IMG/VR virus record: IMGVR_UViG_3300022539_000128
Span: 1 to 35,256 of that record
Strand: one strand, 5' to 3'
From: a virus
Length of the DNA: 35,256 nucleotides
Made by a program: the position numbers and the translations under genes. The notes below the pieces were generated by a model. That model had not been told where the DNA came from, did no database searches, and saw only the letters and a list, made by a program, of their open reading frames with translations. This document shows, piece after piece, positions 5,739-35,256 of this stretch (the stretch's first letter is position 1; every line of letters begins with the position of its first letter).

Positions 5739-5866
5739 GCGGGCTTTCAGTGCTAGCAGCCTATCCTGCGTCCAGGAAACCCGCCTTATCTTCAAAGAGC
5801 ATTGGCAAAGCCGCAAAGCACGCCCGCTCGCAGGCGGTTTGGAATATCTTCTATTGACTCTGCCAA
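5739..5866 (-). repeat. Two more long-stem hairpins related to the 3.4-3.9 kb array
   Basis: GCGGGCTTTC at 5739-5748 pairs with 5776-5784 (9 bp with one bulge). TTGGCAAAG at 5802-5810 pairs with CTCTGCCAA at 5858-5866 (one mismatch). The latter closing strand is identical to those of the stems at 3524-3532 and 3819-3827. A TTTGAAG word separates the two hairpins, as in the main array. No gene fits 5536-5905. The region contains these hairpins, a terminator-like hairpin and the 16-bp element. Confidence 0.6.
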
Positions 5867-32957: not shown

Positions 32958-33599
32958 TTACTCAAAATCCGCATCTATCACCGGCCCAACCTTGCGCTTA
33001 GTGTCGGTGATGGCGTAGCCAAGGTTGATAGTGATACCACCAATGAGGGCAGCTGCCTTGTCCTTATAGCGGTCGTCCCTAGCCTTGAGGTGGAACATAT
33101 TCAGGGATGCTGACATCCGGTCCTTGGGATCACACTCCAAGGCCCTTGCCAAACTCTTGTCCTCCAGGTCATTAACTATCTTGGAATTACGATAGTTACG
33201 ACAAGCGTCCCATGCTGTTGCAAAGTCAGCAGATGACAATCGAGCCTCGTATACTGTCTGGTAAGACAATCCTATCTTTCGGGCTGCTGCACCGTCGGTA
33301 CGGCATGCAATCACCGCTTTTAAGTAATCCAAAGACCAGTTAGGCCAATGGAGTTTGGGTTTCAGGGGGATAAGCTTTTTAAGTACATTCTCTTTGCTTT
33401 GCACCTCACTTTGTTCAATCCCAGTAATAGCATCCACAGATACATCCTTACTACATCCTTCCGGAGGGATGTTAATTACATCCTCTTCAGATGGGGTGAT
33501 AGGAGCAAGAGTAACGGGGTTGGCTAGTACGAGTGCTTGGCGTTGCTTTTGGCTGTCTTTCACGGTGCGGAAGGTAAATTGATGTTTCCTGATATACAA
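32958..33599 (-). CDS. Probable terminase small subunit
   Basis: This 213-residue protein, from about residue 85, reads SLDYLKAVIACRTDGAAARKIGLSYQTVYEARLSSADFATAWDACRNY. This is an HTH followed by the F-x-x-A-W helix common in small terminases. LMARDDRYK-like ending helices (HLKARDDRYKDKAAA) also fit. It would recognise packaging sites. The N-terminal 80 residues are low in structure. The start is uncertain: a TTG at 33599 (used here) or a GTG at 33563, neither with a clear ribosome site. It lies 3.5 kb from terL, unusually far. Confidence 0.62.
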   Translation of the reverse strand: MYIRKHQFTFRTVKDSQKQRQALVLANPVTLAPITPSEEDVINIPPEGCSKDVSVDAITGIEQSEVQSKENVLKKLIPLKPKLHWPNWSLDYLKAVIACRTDGAAARKIGLSYQTVYEARLSSADFATAWDACRNYRNSKIVNDLEDKSLARALECDPKDRMSASLNMFHLKARDDRYKDKAAALIGGITINLGYAITDTKRKVGPVIDADFE

Positions 33600-33615
33600 G
33601 ACATTTCTTAAATTA

Positions 33616-33631
33616 TTTTCTCGACGGGGAA
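33616..33631. promoter_or_regulatory. Copy 2 of the 16-bp element TTTTCTCGACGGGGAA
   Basis: Identical to 5639-5654. It lies 17 bases upstream of the first minus-strand gene and between divergent transcription units, so it is well placed as an operator or a promoter part. If transcription starts just past it, the first gene might begin at the GTG at 33563 instead of the TTG. Confidence 0.5.
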
Positions 33632-33664
33632 GGGCGTTTAATCAAGAAATGCTGAAAAAAAGAC

Positions 33665-33694
33665 TTGACAGACGGTATCCGACGGTAGTAACGT
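33665..33694 (+). promoter_or_regulatory. Plus-strand promoter with direct repeat
   Basis: TTGACA (33665-33670) and, 18 bases on, TAACGT form a promoter with a perfect -35 and weak -10. GACGGTA occurs at 33671 and again at 33681, exactly one helical turn apart, so a regulator may bind the spacer. It would drive the four plus-strand genes. Confidence 0.6.
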
Positions 33695-33736
33695 GTGATC
33701 GTGAATATGACAACTAACCAACAGGGGAATAGAACA

Positions 33737-34039
33737 ATGGCACAACTCAATCAAATAGGCAAACATGCCACCACCATAAGCACGATTGACGGGGTAACAT
33801 CAGTAGTGTATCACTCAACAGCGGTTGTGCGGTTCGATAAGGACAAGATCGTCCTGAACTCTAACGGCTGGCACACTCAAACCACTAAAAACAGAATGAA
33901 CCAGACATCGCACCAGTTCGGCCTTGGTTACAGGGTTTACCAAAAGGATTATGAGTGGTTTGTTGAGTTTGGCGGGGAAGTTTACGGATTTGCCGATAAA
34001 ATGACCTTGGAAGCAGACGGTAGCGTAACCTACGCCTAG
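33737..34039 (+). CDS. Conserved-type phage hypothetical protein
   Basis: I use the ATG at 33737, which has AGGGGA eight bases upstream; 100 residues. It reads MAQLNQIGKHATTISTIDGVTSVVYHSTAVV...VLNSNGWHTQTTKNRMNQTSHQFGLGYRVYQKDYEWFVEFGGE, a beta-rich protein. I believe I have seen this N-S-x-G-W...T-K-x-R-M-N-Q pattern in uncharacterised environmental phages. It is the first gene of the plus-strand, probably early, unit. It is directly followed by the mini tRNA-like element, whose first base overlaps the last base of the stop codon. Confidence 0.7.
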   Translation: MAQLNQIGKHATTISTIDGVTSVVYHSTAVVRFDKDKIVLNSNGWHTQTTKNRMNQTSHQFGLGYRVYQKDYEWFVEFGGEVYGFADKMTLEADGSVTYA

Positions 34040-34080
34040 CCAGAACGGTTCCGCCGGGGTTCGATTCCCCGGCTGGCACA
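34039..34080 (+). ncRNA. Mini tRNA-like element with intact T-arm
   Basis: GCCAG (34039-34043) pairs with CTGGC (34073-34077). Between them is CCGGGG-TTCGATT-CCCCGG (34054-34072), a textbook T-arm with a seven-base loop. Only ten bases replace the D and anticodon arms. The 3' end is ACA rather than CCA. It could be the 3' remnant of a tRNA gene, as in integrase attP sites, or a tRNA-like RNA signal. Confidence 0.6.
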
Positions 34081-34082
34081 AA

Positions 34083-34171
34083 GTGAATACGACGCCACAT
34101 ACTCAACAATTACCCCTGGCCGGGAACCTCTGCTCGTTACCGAGCTGTCGTATTCACATCCCGGCCAGGGG
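34083..34171 (+). ncRNA. Large H-type pseudoknot (11-bp and 13-bp stems)
   Basis: GTGAATACGAC (34083-34093) pairs with 34147-34157. CCCCTGGCCGGGA (34113-34125) pairs with 34159-34171. The four strands are interleaved (A, B, A', B') with a single base between A' and B', the arrangement of an H-type pseudoknot with stacked stems. A 5-bp hairpin GCTCG-TTAC-CGAGC (34132-34145) sits in the second loop. All pairs are Watson-Crick. It lies 19 bases ahead of the next start codon. Confidence 0.8.
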
Positions 34172-34190
34172 CTATCTTAATGAGGGAATC

Positions 34191-34379
34191 ATGGCCATCA
34201 ATAAAGTCTTAGTAAAAAAGATACAACGGTTATCACAAAAGTATTACGATGACCTCCAGCGTATCTATGATGACGAAATGGACTTGGAGACCTATGAGAA
34301 CAGTCCCGCTGTCGAAGCCAGCGTAATAGCGCAAGGGGAAGCCGAAGCCACTGTAAATGCCGATATTGAATGGGATTAA
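34191..34379 (+). CDS. Small hypothetical protein behind the pseudoknot
   Basis: This 62-residue protein starts MAINKVLVKKIQRLSQKYYDDLQRIYDDEMDLETYE. It is helical and basic at first, acidic later (AEATVNADIEWD). GAGGGAATC precedes the ATG. An earlier in-frame ATG at 34083 would code across the pseudoknot and lacks a ribosome site. Function is unknown. Its leader contains the pseudoknot, so translation may be controlled by it. Confidence 0.65.
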   Translation: MAINKVLVKKIQRLSQKYYDDLQRIYDDEMDLETYENSPAVEASVIAQGEAEATVNADIEWD

Positions 34380-34457
34380 CCAATGAAGGTCAAATATCAA
34401 GAAGTAGCAACCGACGGTAAGCGCATATATATAAAACCAACTACAAGTGAGGGAATT

Positions 34458-34874
34458 ATGGAACACACACCTGGACCTTGGGAAACACAAGACGGCTTTG
34501 TCCGCTCCGGTCCACTAGGACACCCCGATACAAAGCCAATCTGTTATATCCAGACATCTGCACGTAAACCGAACGTTGCCGAAGCCAACGCCAACGCCCG
34601 CCGGATAGTCTCTTGCGTGAATGCCTGTAAGGACATGAGTGATCCAGAGGCCGAGATCAAGCGATTGAAACGCTACGATGAAACGCCCAAGTGTCATCAC
34701 GGGCACGTCAGTCTGCCTCTGCATCTTTGGGATTGCCCCACCTGTACTGAGCAACTCCGTCGGGACAAGGCGGAACTGGTGAAGGCGCTTAAAAAAATCT
34801 TTGCCGACAGCGAAGAATATTACATACAGGATATTGCCGAAGTCGCCATCGCCAAGCACGGAAGGGAATCCTAA
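34458..34874 (+). CDS. Phage protein of the HTPGPW type with possible zinc site
   Basis: I chose the ATG at 34458, which has GAGGGAATT upstream, giving 138 residues. The ATG at 34383 would add 25 residues but has a poor site. MEHTPGPWE at the start and AEANANARRIVSCVNAC (about 46-62) match a widespread uncharacterised phage family. CHHGH...DCPTC (about 75-95) may bind zinc. The C-terminus is helical. Function is unknown. Confidence 0.7.
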   Translation: MEHTPGPWETQDGFVRSGPLGHPDTKPICYIQTSARKPNVAEANANARRIVSCVNACKDMSDPEAEIKRLKRYDETPKCHHGHVSLPLHLWDCPTCTEQLRRDKAELVKALKKIFADSEEYYIQDIAEVAIAKHGRES

Positions 34875-35098
34875 TGCCAGAAGATAAGCCCCTGTCCCGG
34901 TCTAGCCACTACCTGCACAAGCACAATGCGGTGCGCCCGTATATAGCCATACCCAGGGGATTGTGGGCGGATTTCCAGCGGGCGGTAGACAAAGAGAACG
35001 CCCGGACCAATAAGCCAGAGCTGCGTCTGTCAAGGTCGTATGTAGTGGTTACGCTTGTCGAGAAGTGGGTATATGACCGGCTGAAACAGGCGGATTAA
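34874..35098 (+). CDS. Small ribbon-helix-helix-like hypothetical protein
   Basis: This 74-residue protein overlaps the previous stop by one base (TAATG). YIAIPRGLWADFQRAVDKENAR...LRLSRSYVVVTLVEKWV has the strand-helix-helix pattern seen in ribbon-helix-helix DNA-binding proteins. It could regulate the divergent promoters, but this is inference. Last gene of the plus-strand unit. Confidence 0.6.
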   Translation: MPEDKPLSRSSHYLHKHNAVRPYIAIPRGLWADFQRAVDKENARTNKPELRLSRSYVVVTLVEKWVYDRLKQAD

Positions 35099-35251
35099 TT
35101 ACTTGCGCCTGTCTGATAGTTTGCGGCGCCCCAGAAGATTGAGTCCTCCTATTCTCCTACCATGCCCTTCACGCCGCATATTCCCGCCGCGCCTGTTCTT
35201 GGGGACAACCCTTCCCCTCTTCCCCTTGCTGAAGTCGTATTCAGGTTTCAT
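35099..35251 (-). CDS. Small basic protein with antitoxin-like N-terminus
   Basis: Read from the ATG at 35251 it gives 50 residues: MKPEYDFSKGKRGRVVPKNRR... followed by a very Arg/Gly-rich tail. The opening E-Y-D-F-S-K-G-K-R-G is a pattern I associate with the N-terminus of CopG/BrnA-type antitoxins, but the DNA-binding part is absent. It may be a short relative or a truncated copy. It is convergent with the gene ending at 35098 and leaves no space for a terminator. The ribosome site lies outside the window. Confidence 0.5.
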   Translation of the reverse strand: MKPEYDFSKGKRGRVVPKNRRGGNMRREGHGRRIGGLNLLGRRKLSDRRK

Positions 35252-35256
35252 GTCTG

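What the first reader, a model, noticed from the sequence alone, without database searches (positions are those of the whole stretch)
34083..34171. Large interleaved inverted repeats forming an H-type pseudoknot between two early genes
Two perfect inverted repeats (11 bp and 13 bp) are interleaved as A-B-A'-B' with one base between A' and B'. A 5-bp tetraloop hairpin fills the second loop. That is 24 Watson-Crick pairs in 89 bases, far beyond chance, in a space with no supported gene. It sits 19 bases before a start codon. It could be a translational switch, an RNA stabiliser, a host-factor sponge or an exonuclease-resistant element. I know of no described phage RNA with this exact shape.
Basis: partly seen in the sequence, partly recalled or inferred. 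Interest (0 to 1): 0.82.

Follow-up and report, generated by a model that had tools for sequence, protein, structure and literature searches.

The report
Phage tRNA-mimic gene-junction RNA, pseudoknot version
The interleaved repeats are real and form the second half of a larger RNA signal between two phage genes, whose first half is a stripped-down imitation of a tRNA that recurs at gene junctions in many unrelated phages and is absent from the standard RNA library.

Summary
Perfect 11-bp and 13-bp inverted repeats interleave A-B-A'-B' in 34083-34171, far beyond chance (0 of 60 shuffled windows reach 10+10 bp).

The pseudoknot itself has no homologue except one 99.9%-identical contig, so it cannot be tested by covariation. 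A nested fold keeps only stem B, so whether both stems form together is open.

The main result lies just upstream. Positions 34039-34077 form an unannotated "minihelix": a 5-bp acceptor-like stem, a D-loop-like bulge AACGGTTCCG, and a 6-bp T-stem with T-loop TTCGATT. The same element occurs in Mycobacterium, Streptomyces and Corynebacterium phages, a Tannerella contig and many metagenomic phages, often 5-11 copies per genome. Eleven pairs covary (145 two-sided changes in 34 sequences). It sits at the stop codon of one gene, typically 36-52 nt before the next start, and a covarying hairpin often follows within 2-5 nt. It matches no Rfam 15 family. In this window the pseudoknot occupies the hairpin's place.

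Best explanation (inferred): a minimal tRNA mimic acts as a processing and punctuation signal for host tRNA-maturation enzymes, and the structure behind it protects the new 5' end of the downstream mRNA.

The parts
33737..34039 (+). upstream ORF, 100 aa (PHROG 554, unknown function); its stop TAG 34037-34039 overlaps the minihelix
34039..34077 (+). minihelix (tRNA mimic): acceptor-like stem 34039-34043/34073-34077, bulge AACGGTTCCG 34044-34053, T-stem 34054-34059/34067-34072, T-loop TTCGATT 34060-34066
   Evidence: model R1 match 34037-34083, 65.5 bits; covariation of the family
34078..34082 (+). spacer ACAAA (ACGA or ACAA in most relatives); inferred region of 3' processing
   Evidence: processing is inference
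34083..34093 (+). stem A, 5' arm (11 nt)
34113..34125 (+). stem B, 5' arm (13 nt)
   Evidence: paired with probability near 1 in the nested fold
34132..34145 (+). 5-bp hairpin with TTAC loop between B and A'
34147..34157 (+). stem A, 3' arm
34159..34171 (+). stem B, 3' arm
34182..34187 (+). Shine-Dalgarno-like GAGGGA
   Evidence: read
34191..34379 (+). downstream ORF, 62 aa, no family match

Best explanation
The region 34039-34171 is one gene-junction RNA element in two modules. SHOWN by comparison: the first module is a minimal tRNA mimic (acceptor-like stem + D-loop-like bulge with GG + T-arm, 11 stacked pairs) that belongs to a widespread, covarying phage RNA family. It is placed at stop codons inside gene arrays and often has a hairpin 2-5 nt behind it. 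SHOWN by position only: in this phage the second module is the interleaved-repeat structure instead of a simple hairpin. INFERRED: host tRNA-maturation enzymes (RNase P on the 5' side, RNase Z on the 3' side near 34077-34082) recognise the mimic in the polycistronic transcript and cut there. This separates the upstream message from the downstream one. The downstream message then begins 1-5 nt before a rigid structure (stem A first, then B, perhaps both as an H-type pseudoknot), which denies 5'-end-dependent nucleases (RNase J/RNase E type) a single-stranded grip. A freed 5' end next to stem A would also let a pseudoknot with stems as long as a helical turn or more be threaded.
For: The family is real. 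Model R1 finds 109 places in 129 sources and the window scores 65.5 bits. All 11 pairs form in all 34 rows, with 145 two-sided changes; sliding the partners by 1-3 columns drops pairing to 35-51%. Without using pairing as a selection criterion, 43 of 63 non-tRNA pattern hits have at least 4 contiguous acceptor pairs, against 12% when 5' strands are permuted. Position: an ORF-ending stop lies within 15 nt of the acceptor start in 74 of 84 elements, against 18% at random sites. In annotated phages Cuke, Indlulamithi and Predator most elements start 7-14 nt after a stop and end 36-52 nt before the next start, and 24 of 36 gaps of at least 60 nt hold one. Second module: helix score of at least 7 directly behind the minihelix in 33% of 89 elements, against 2% in shuffles and 4% at random sites; that hairpin covaries. 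Stem A starts 5 nt behind the acceptor stem, where the hairpin starts in relatives. Enzyme precedent: RNase P RNA cleaves model substrates made of acceptor stem, T-stem and T-loop (PMC11143913) and measures from the tRNA elbow (PMC4919913); known non-tRNA substrates include mRNAs and phage RNAs (PMC4919922). 5' roadblocks stabilise mRNA against RNase J1 (PMC3997798).
Against: There is no transcript, cleavage or stability data. RNAfold, which has no pseudoknots or tertiary contacts, gives stem A and the acceptor stem zero probability in the window and prefers stem B plus pairing of minihelix strands with the Shine-Dalgarno/ATG region: -71.6 versus -65.1 kcal/mol with the minihelix enforced. About a third of minihelices have no clear downstream hairpin. 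RNase Z involvement rests only on the rarity of an encoded CCA after the stem (0 of 75; 2 of 33). No diverged homologue of the pseudoknot exists to test its two stems.
Confidence: 0.45

Rival explanations
1. The minihelix acts on translation, not on RNA cutting: a tRNA mimic between a stop and a start is recognised by the ribosome or a translation factor and controls termination, recycling or re-initiation at the next gene; the structure behind it spaces or insulates the two genes.
For: Fixed position just after the stop and usually 36-52 nt before the next start. In the window the nested fold pairs minihelix strands with the Shine-Dalgarno and ATG of the next gene, giving a possible switch.
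Against: The pairing with the Shine-Dalgarno region is not seen as a general feature of the relatives. In the window the start is 113 nt from the minihelix, far from the usual spacing. Elements also occur 137 and 33 nt after a stop.
Confidence: 0.25
2. The 34083-34171 part is only a strong hairpin: stem B with the small hairpin inside. Stem A/A' does not pair in the RNA and its complementarity is incidental or serves as DNA.
For: Stem B dominates the nested fold and A has probability 0 there. An 11-bp inverted repeat alone is expected 0.67 times per shuffled window. Long-stem H-type pseudoknots are topologically awkward.
Against: A starts where the downstream hairpin starts in relatives, and A' ends one base before B'. 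Interleaving of two such long repeats is far beyond chance.
Confidence: 0.4
3. The T-arm sequence is a phage attachment site copied from a host tRNA gene, and the repeats are integrase or accessory-protein binding sites in DNA.
For: Phages that integrate at tRNA genes carry tRNA 3' ends (general knowledge); inverted repeats often bind proteins.
Against: Genomes hold up to about ten copies with different stems that covary. The sequence is not the 3' end of a full tRNA: the 5' acceptor strand and bulge are local. The copies lie at gene junctions.
Confidence: 0.03
4. The downstream gene starts at GTG 34083 and the repeats are coding sequence.
For: The frame is open from 34083 to 34379.
Against: There is no Shine-Dalgarno before 34083 and a clear one before ATG 34191; a 36-codon open stretch is not rare; the interleaved repeats would be an unlikely coding accident.
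Confidence: 0.05

Closest known systems
RNase P model substrates (acceptor stem + T-stem + T-loop) and natural non-tRNA substrates (tmRNA, 4.5S RNA, phage M3 and C4 RNA)
   Same: Acceptor/T-arm stack of about 11-12 pairs with a T-loop; bacterial RNase P tolerates loss of other tRNA parts (PMC11143913, PMC4919922).
   Different: Here a conserved GG-bearing bulge is kept, copies are repeated at gene junctions, and a hairpin or pseudoknot follows; cleavage has not been shown.
mascRNA / menRNA (Rfam RF01684)
   Same: tRNA-like element without a translation role, processed by tRNA enzymes; weak sub-threshold Rfam similarity (16 bits against a cut-off of 42.5).
   Different: Mammalian; no family relation shown; the phage element has no anticodon-arm remnant.
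tRNA punctuation of mitochondrial transcripts
   Same: tRNA structures between genes of a polycistronic transcript (a works-like comparison only; abstract of PMC8601606).
   Different: Real tRNAs there; here truncated mimics without an anticodon.
Start-associated sequences (SAS/ESAS) of cluster K mycobacteriophages
   Same: Repeated elements, half of them with inverted repeats, upstream of phage starts in gaps over 50 bp (PMC3203893).
   Different: A fixed 13-bp sequence plus an imperfect 17-bp repeat; no T-loop and no covarying acceptor stem is described.
Viral tRNA-like structures and exonuclease-resistant RNAs of RNA viruses
   Same: tRNA mimicry, and structured RNA near an end that could block nucleases (general knowledge; PMC5723415 abstract for mimicry).
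   Different: DNA phage, intergenic and repeated; no sequence or topology match was tested.

Membership tests
Phage minihelix family defined here (model R1) | acceptor stem of about 5 bp + A-rich bulge with GG + 5-7 bp T-stem + TTCGANT loop | tested here: met
   window 34037-34083, 65.5 bits, E=9.6e-16; the window copy is itself one of the 34 sequences in the model
Phage minihelix family defined here (model R1) | position at an upstream stop codon and before a start codon | tested here: met
   stop TAG 34037-34039 overlaps the element; next ATG at 34191, 113 nt away instead of the usual 36-52
Phage minihelix family defined here (model R1) | simple hairpin 2-5 nt downstream (frequent, not universal) | tested here: not met
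   best local hairpin score 3.5; the interleaved A/B structure starts there instead
tRNA gene | cloverleaf with anticodon arm | tested here: not met
   ARAGORN finds none in the window nor at the elements checked
tRNA or tmRNA (Rfam) | match at gathering score | tested here: not met
RNase P / RNase Z substrate | cleavage at the element borders | not testable with these tools
   needs enzymes or end-mapped RNA
H-type pseudoknot | two interleaved stems present in the sequence | tested here: met
H-type pseudoknot | compensatory change in both stems among homologues | tested here: inconclusive
   only a 99.9% identical copy exists
Intrinsic terminator | GC-rich hairpin followed by a T-run | tested here: not met
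   no + strand terminator-like site in 33500-34500
SAS/ESAS repeats of cluster K phages | 13-bp GGGATAGGAGCCC at the start codon | tested here: not met
   not present between 34039 and 34191 by inspection; definition from PMC3203893

The most novel reading that the evidence does not exclude
Diverse phages punctuate their gene arrays with repeated minimal tRNA mimics that host tRNA-maturation enzymes cut, each paired with a structured 5' cap for the downstream message; in this phage the cap has been elaborated into a long-stem H-type pseudoknot that can thread only after the 5' end has been freed.
Probability: 0.3. Interest if true: 0.92.

Novelty: new variant of a known kind. Interest (0 to 1): 0.78.

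Why it matters
A covarying, tRNA-like RNA family present in up to about ten copies per genome, in phages of several bacterial groups, appears to be unannotated: no Rfam 15 match, and nothing found in seven full-text searches of the open-access library. If processing is confirmed, it would be tRNA-style punctuation of phage messages by minimal mimics, and would help explain how phages set separate lifetimes and doses for genes in one transcript. It can be tested directly in cultured phages (Cuke, Fowlmouth, Predator, Indlulamithi on M. smegmatis). It also gives gene callers a boundary mark: in Cuke two annotated genes run across such elements. The window's version would be a natural test of whether a long-stem pseudoknot can serve as a 5' nuclease barrier in bacteria.

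Tried and rejected
Rfam scans at gathering and relaxed thresholds gave no family. ARAGORN gave no tRNA or tmRNA in the window. Attachment site rejected: many copies with different covarying stems. Intrinsic terminator rejected. Self-cleaving ribozymes of nested double-pseudoknot type (HDV-like) were considered from general knowledge: the topology resembles P1-P2-P3, but only one base joins A' and B', so there is no room for the P4 and J4/2 part, and Rfam does not match. Coding reading of A/B (open frame from GTG 34083) judged unlikely for lack of a Shine-Dalgarno; not excluded. Other phages carrying the minihelix were scanned for interleaved repeats behind it: none comparable. CCA avoidance as evidence for RNase Z was considered and kept only as weak. 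Structure prediction of the small flanking proteins was not pursued because it does not bear on the RNA question.

Full report
1. The observation. A 5-bp hairpin with a TTAC loop lies at 34132-34145, and 19 bases separate B' from the ATG at 34191. The arrangement is the only interleaved pair of at least 9+9 bp in the window. Dinucleotide-shuffled windows give 0.07 such pairs at 9 bp and none in 60 windows at 10 bp. In 1.15 Mb of other phage DNA the best is 11+10 bp.

2. No homologue of the pseudoknot. BLAST in 50,697 phage and 72,556 plasmid records, an exact-pattern scan of IMG/VR and searches through neighbouring proteins found the repeats only in contig IMGVR_UViG_3300022538_000174. It is 99.9% identical over 15 kb and identical here. 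Covariation of stems A and B therefore cannot be tested. A nested fold keeps stem B and gives stem A zero probability. That program cannot represent a pseudoknot, so this says only that B is the stronger stem (about -31 kcal/mol as a duplex, against -15 for A).

3. What stands in front of it. The first BLAST hit in Mycobacterium phage Cuke covered 34038-34084, not the repeats. The shared piece is GCCAG-AACGGTTCCG-CCGGGG-TTCGATT-CCCCGG-CTGGC in the window and GCCTG-AACGGTTCTA-CCGGGG-TTCGATT-CCCCGG-CAGGC in Cuke: a T-arm stacked on a 5-bp stem, with the stem changed on both sides. Of 94 unique hits, ARAGORN genuine tRNAs. Of the other 63, 43 have at least 4 contiguous pairs between the bases just 5' of the bulge and just 3' of the T-stem, against 12% expected when 5' strands are permuted. 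This test does not use pairing for selection. The alignment-based counts (34 sequences, 11 pairs, 100% of cells paired, 145 two-sided changes, covariation score 1.03 against 0.20 in shuffles) do lean on members picked by a script that asked for at least 4+4 pairs, so they describe the family rather than prove it independently.

4. The family. A covariance model (R1) matched 109 places in 129 sources, with the window at 65.5 bits. It did not match the real tRNAs in loci such as L011, L024 and L030. Members occur in phages of Mycobacterium (Cuke, Fowlmouth, MrMiyagi, Indlulamithi, Predator, Cborch11), Streptomyces (phiScoe44, Endor1) and Corynebacterium (PSonyx), in a saliva phage, in one Tannerella forsythia contig, and in many metagenomic viruses. 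Genomes hold up to 11 copies with different stems: Cuke 10 and Indlulamithi 11 in the stretches searched, phiScoe44 8 and Cborch11 7, Predator 7. The most constant parts are the bulge core A(A/C)YGG and the loop TTCGANT. In Streptomyces and Konstantine-type phages the bulge reads ACTGGCAGAC, which resembles a tRNA D-loop with its G18-G19 (resemblance from general knowledge; a lead, not a test). The simplest reading is a tRNA elbow: acceptor stem, T-arm and just enough D-loop to dock with the T-loop, without D-stem or anticodon arm. Rfam 15 has no family for it; the nearest sub-threshold similarities are mascRNA and tmRNA fragments.

5. Placement. In 74 of 84 elements an ORF of at least 40 codons ends within 15 nt of the acceptor start, against 18% of random sites on the same strand. 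In three annotated phages most elements begin 7-14 nt after a stop (a few overlap it) and end 36-52 nt before the next start; 24 of 36 gaps of at least 60 nt hold one. In the window the stop TAG at 34037-34039 overlaps the first base of the acceptor stem.

6. The second module. Directly behind the acceptor stem come most often ACGA or ACAA and then, in many members, a hairpin. A helix score of at least 7 is found in 33% of 89 elements, against 2% in shuffles and 4% at random positions. The hairpins covary (12 sequences, 28 two-sided changes, chosen for pairing, so the same caveat applies). In nearly all mycobacteriophage copies the hairpin is obvious by eye. In the window there is no simple hairpin at this place. 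Stem A of the interleaved structure starts 5 nt behind the acceptor stem, where the hairpin starts in relatives. No other member has a comparable interleaved structure. The pseudoknot candidate is therefore best seen as this phage's version of the second module.

7. Mechanism (inferred). Bacterial RNase P RNA cleaves model substrates consisting of acceptor stem, T-stem and T-loop (PMC11143913); RNase P measures from the elbow (PMC4919913) and acts on mRNAs and phage RNAs among other non-tRNA substrates (PMC4919922). A minimal elbow at each gene end would let host enzymes cut the polycistronic message. The new 5' end of the downstream message would then lie 1-5 nt before a stable structure, the kind of roadblock that stabilises mRNAs against RNase J1 (PMC3997798). 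For the window this makes a specific prediction: stems of 11 and 13 bp amount to a helical turn or more and are hard to thread while both ends are long, but become easy once the 5' end is cut just before stem A. None of these steps has been measured. The main rival for function is a purely translational role; in the window the nested fold pairs minihelix strands with the Shine-Dalgarno and ATG of the next gene, but I see no sign that this is general.

8. Verdict. Its interpretation is partly supported: RNA-level action is well supported by the company the repeats keep, the pseudoknot fold is plausible but unproved, and the stabiliser function is one inferred step in a larger picture. The more important result is the neighbouring minihelix family. 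It has clear comparative support, is absent from Rfam 15, and was not found described in seven searches of the open-access full-text library. Subscription papers and preprints were not searched, so prior description cannot be excluded.

Noticed in passing
L136 (Cuke MG757156 29500-38500) 2935-2982 and 3218-3265: Two strong minihelix copies lie inside annotated genes SEA_CUKE_43 and SEA_CUKE_44, each 9-11 nt after the previous stop; the true starts of these genes are probably downstream of the elements.
   Followed up: partly
window 33737-34039: The upstream 100-aa protein belongs to PHROG 554 (unknown function), with homologues in about 250 phage records, nearly all cyanophages.
   Followed up: partly
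window 35074-35256: Near-identity with contig IMGVR_UViG_3300022538_000174 stops at 35074, inside the 74-aa gene, and a 55-bp identical block returns at 35202-35256: a mosaic or deletion boundary at the window's right end.
   Followed up: partly
L142 4405-4452 (Tannerella forsythia NZ_RQYN01000021): One minihelix in a bacterial scaffold, possibly a prophage; it links the family to Bacteroidota hosts.
   Followed up: no
L101 8756-10720, L016 73-3169: Metagenomic phages with five and seven copies; the acceptor stem GGCGC/GCGCC is nearly constant within these genomes, unlike in the mycobacteriophages.
   Followed up: no
L138 (Predator) 2285-2332 and 5758-5805; L134; L135: Variant elements with bulge ACTGGCAGAC or ACCAGCAGAC and, in one, loop TGCGAGT: a possible second subtype that looks like the D-loop of some tRNAs.
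   Followed up: no
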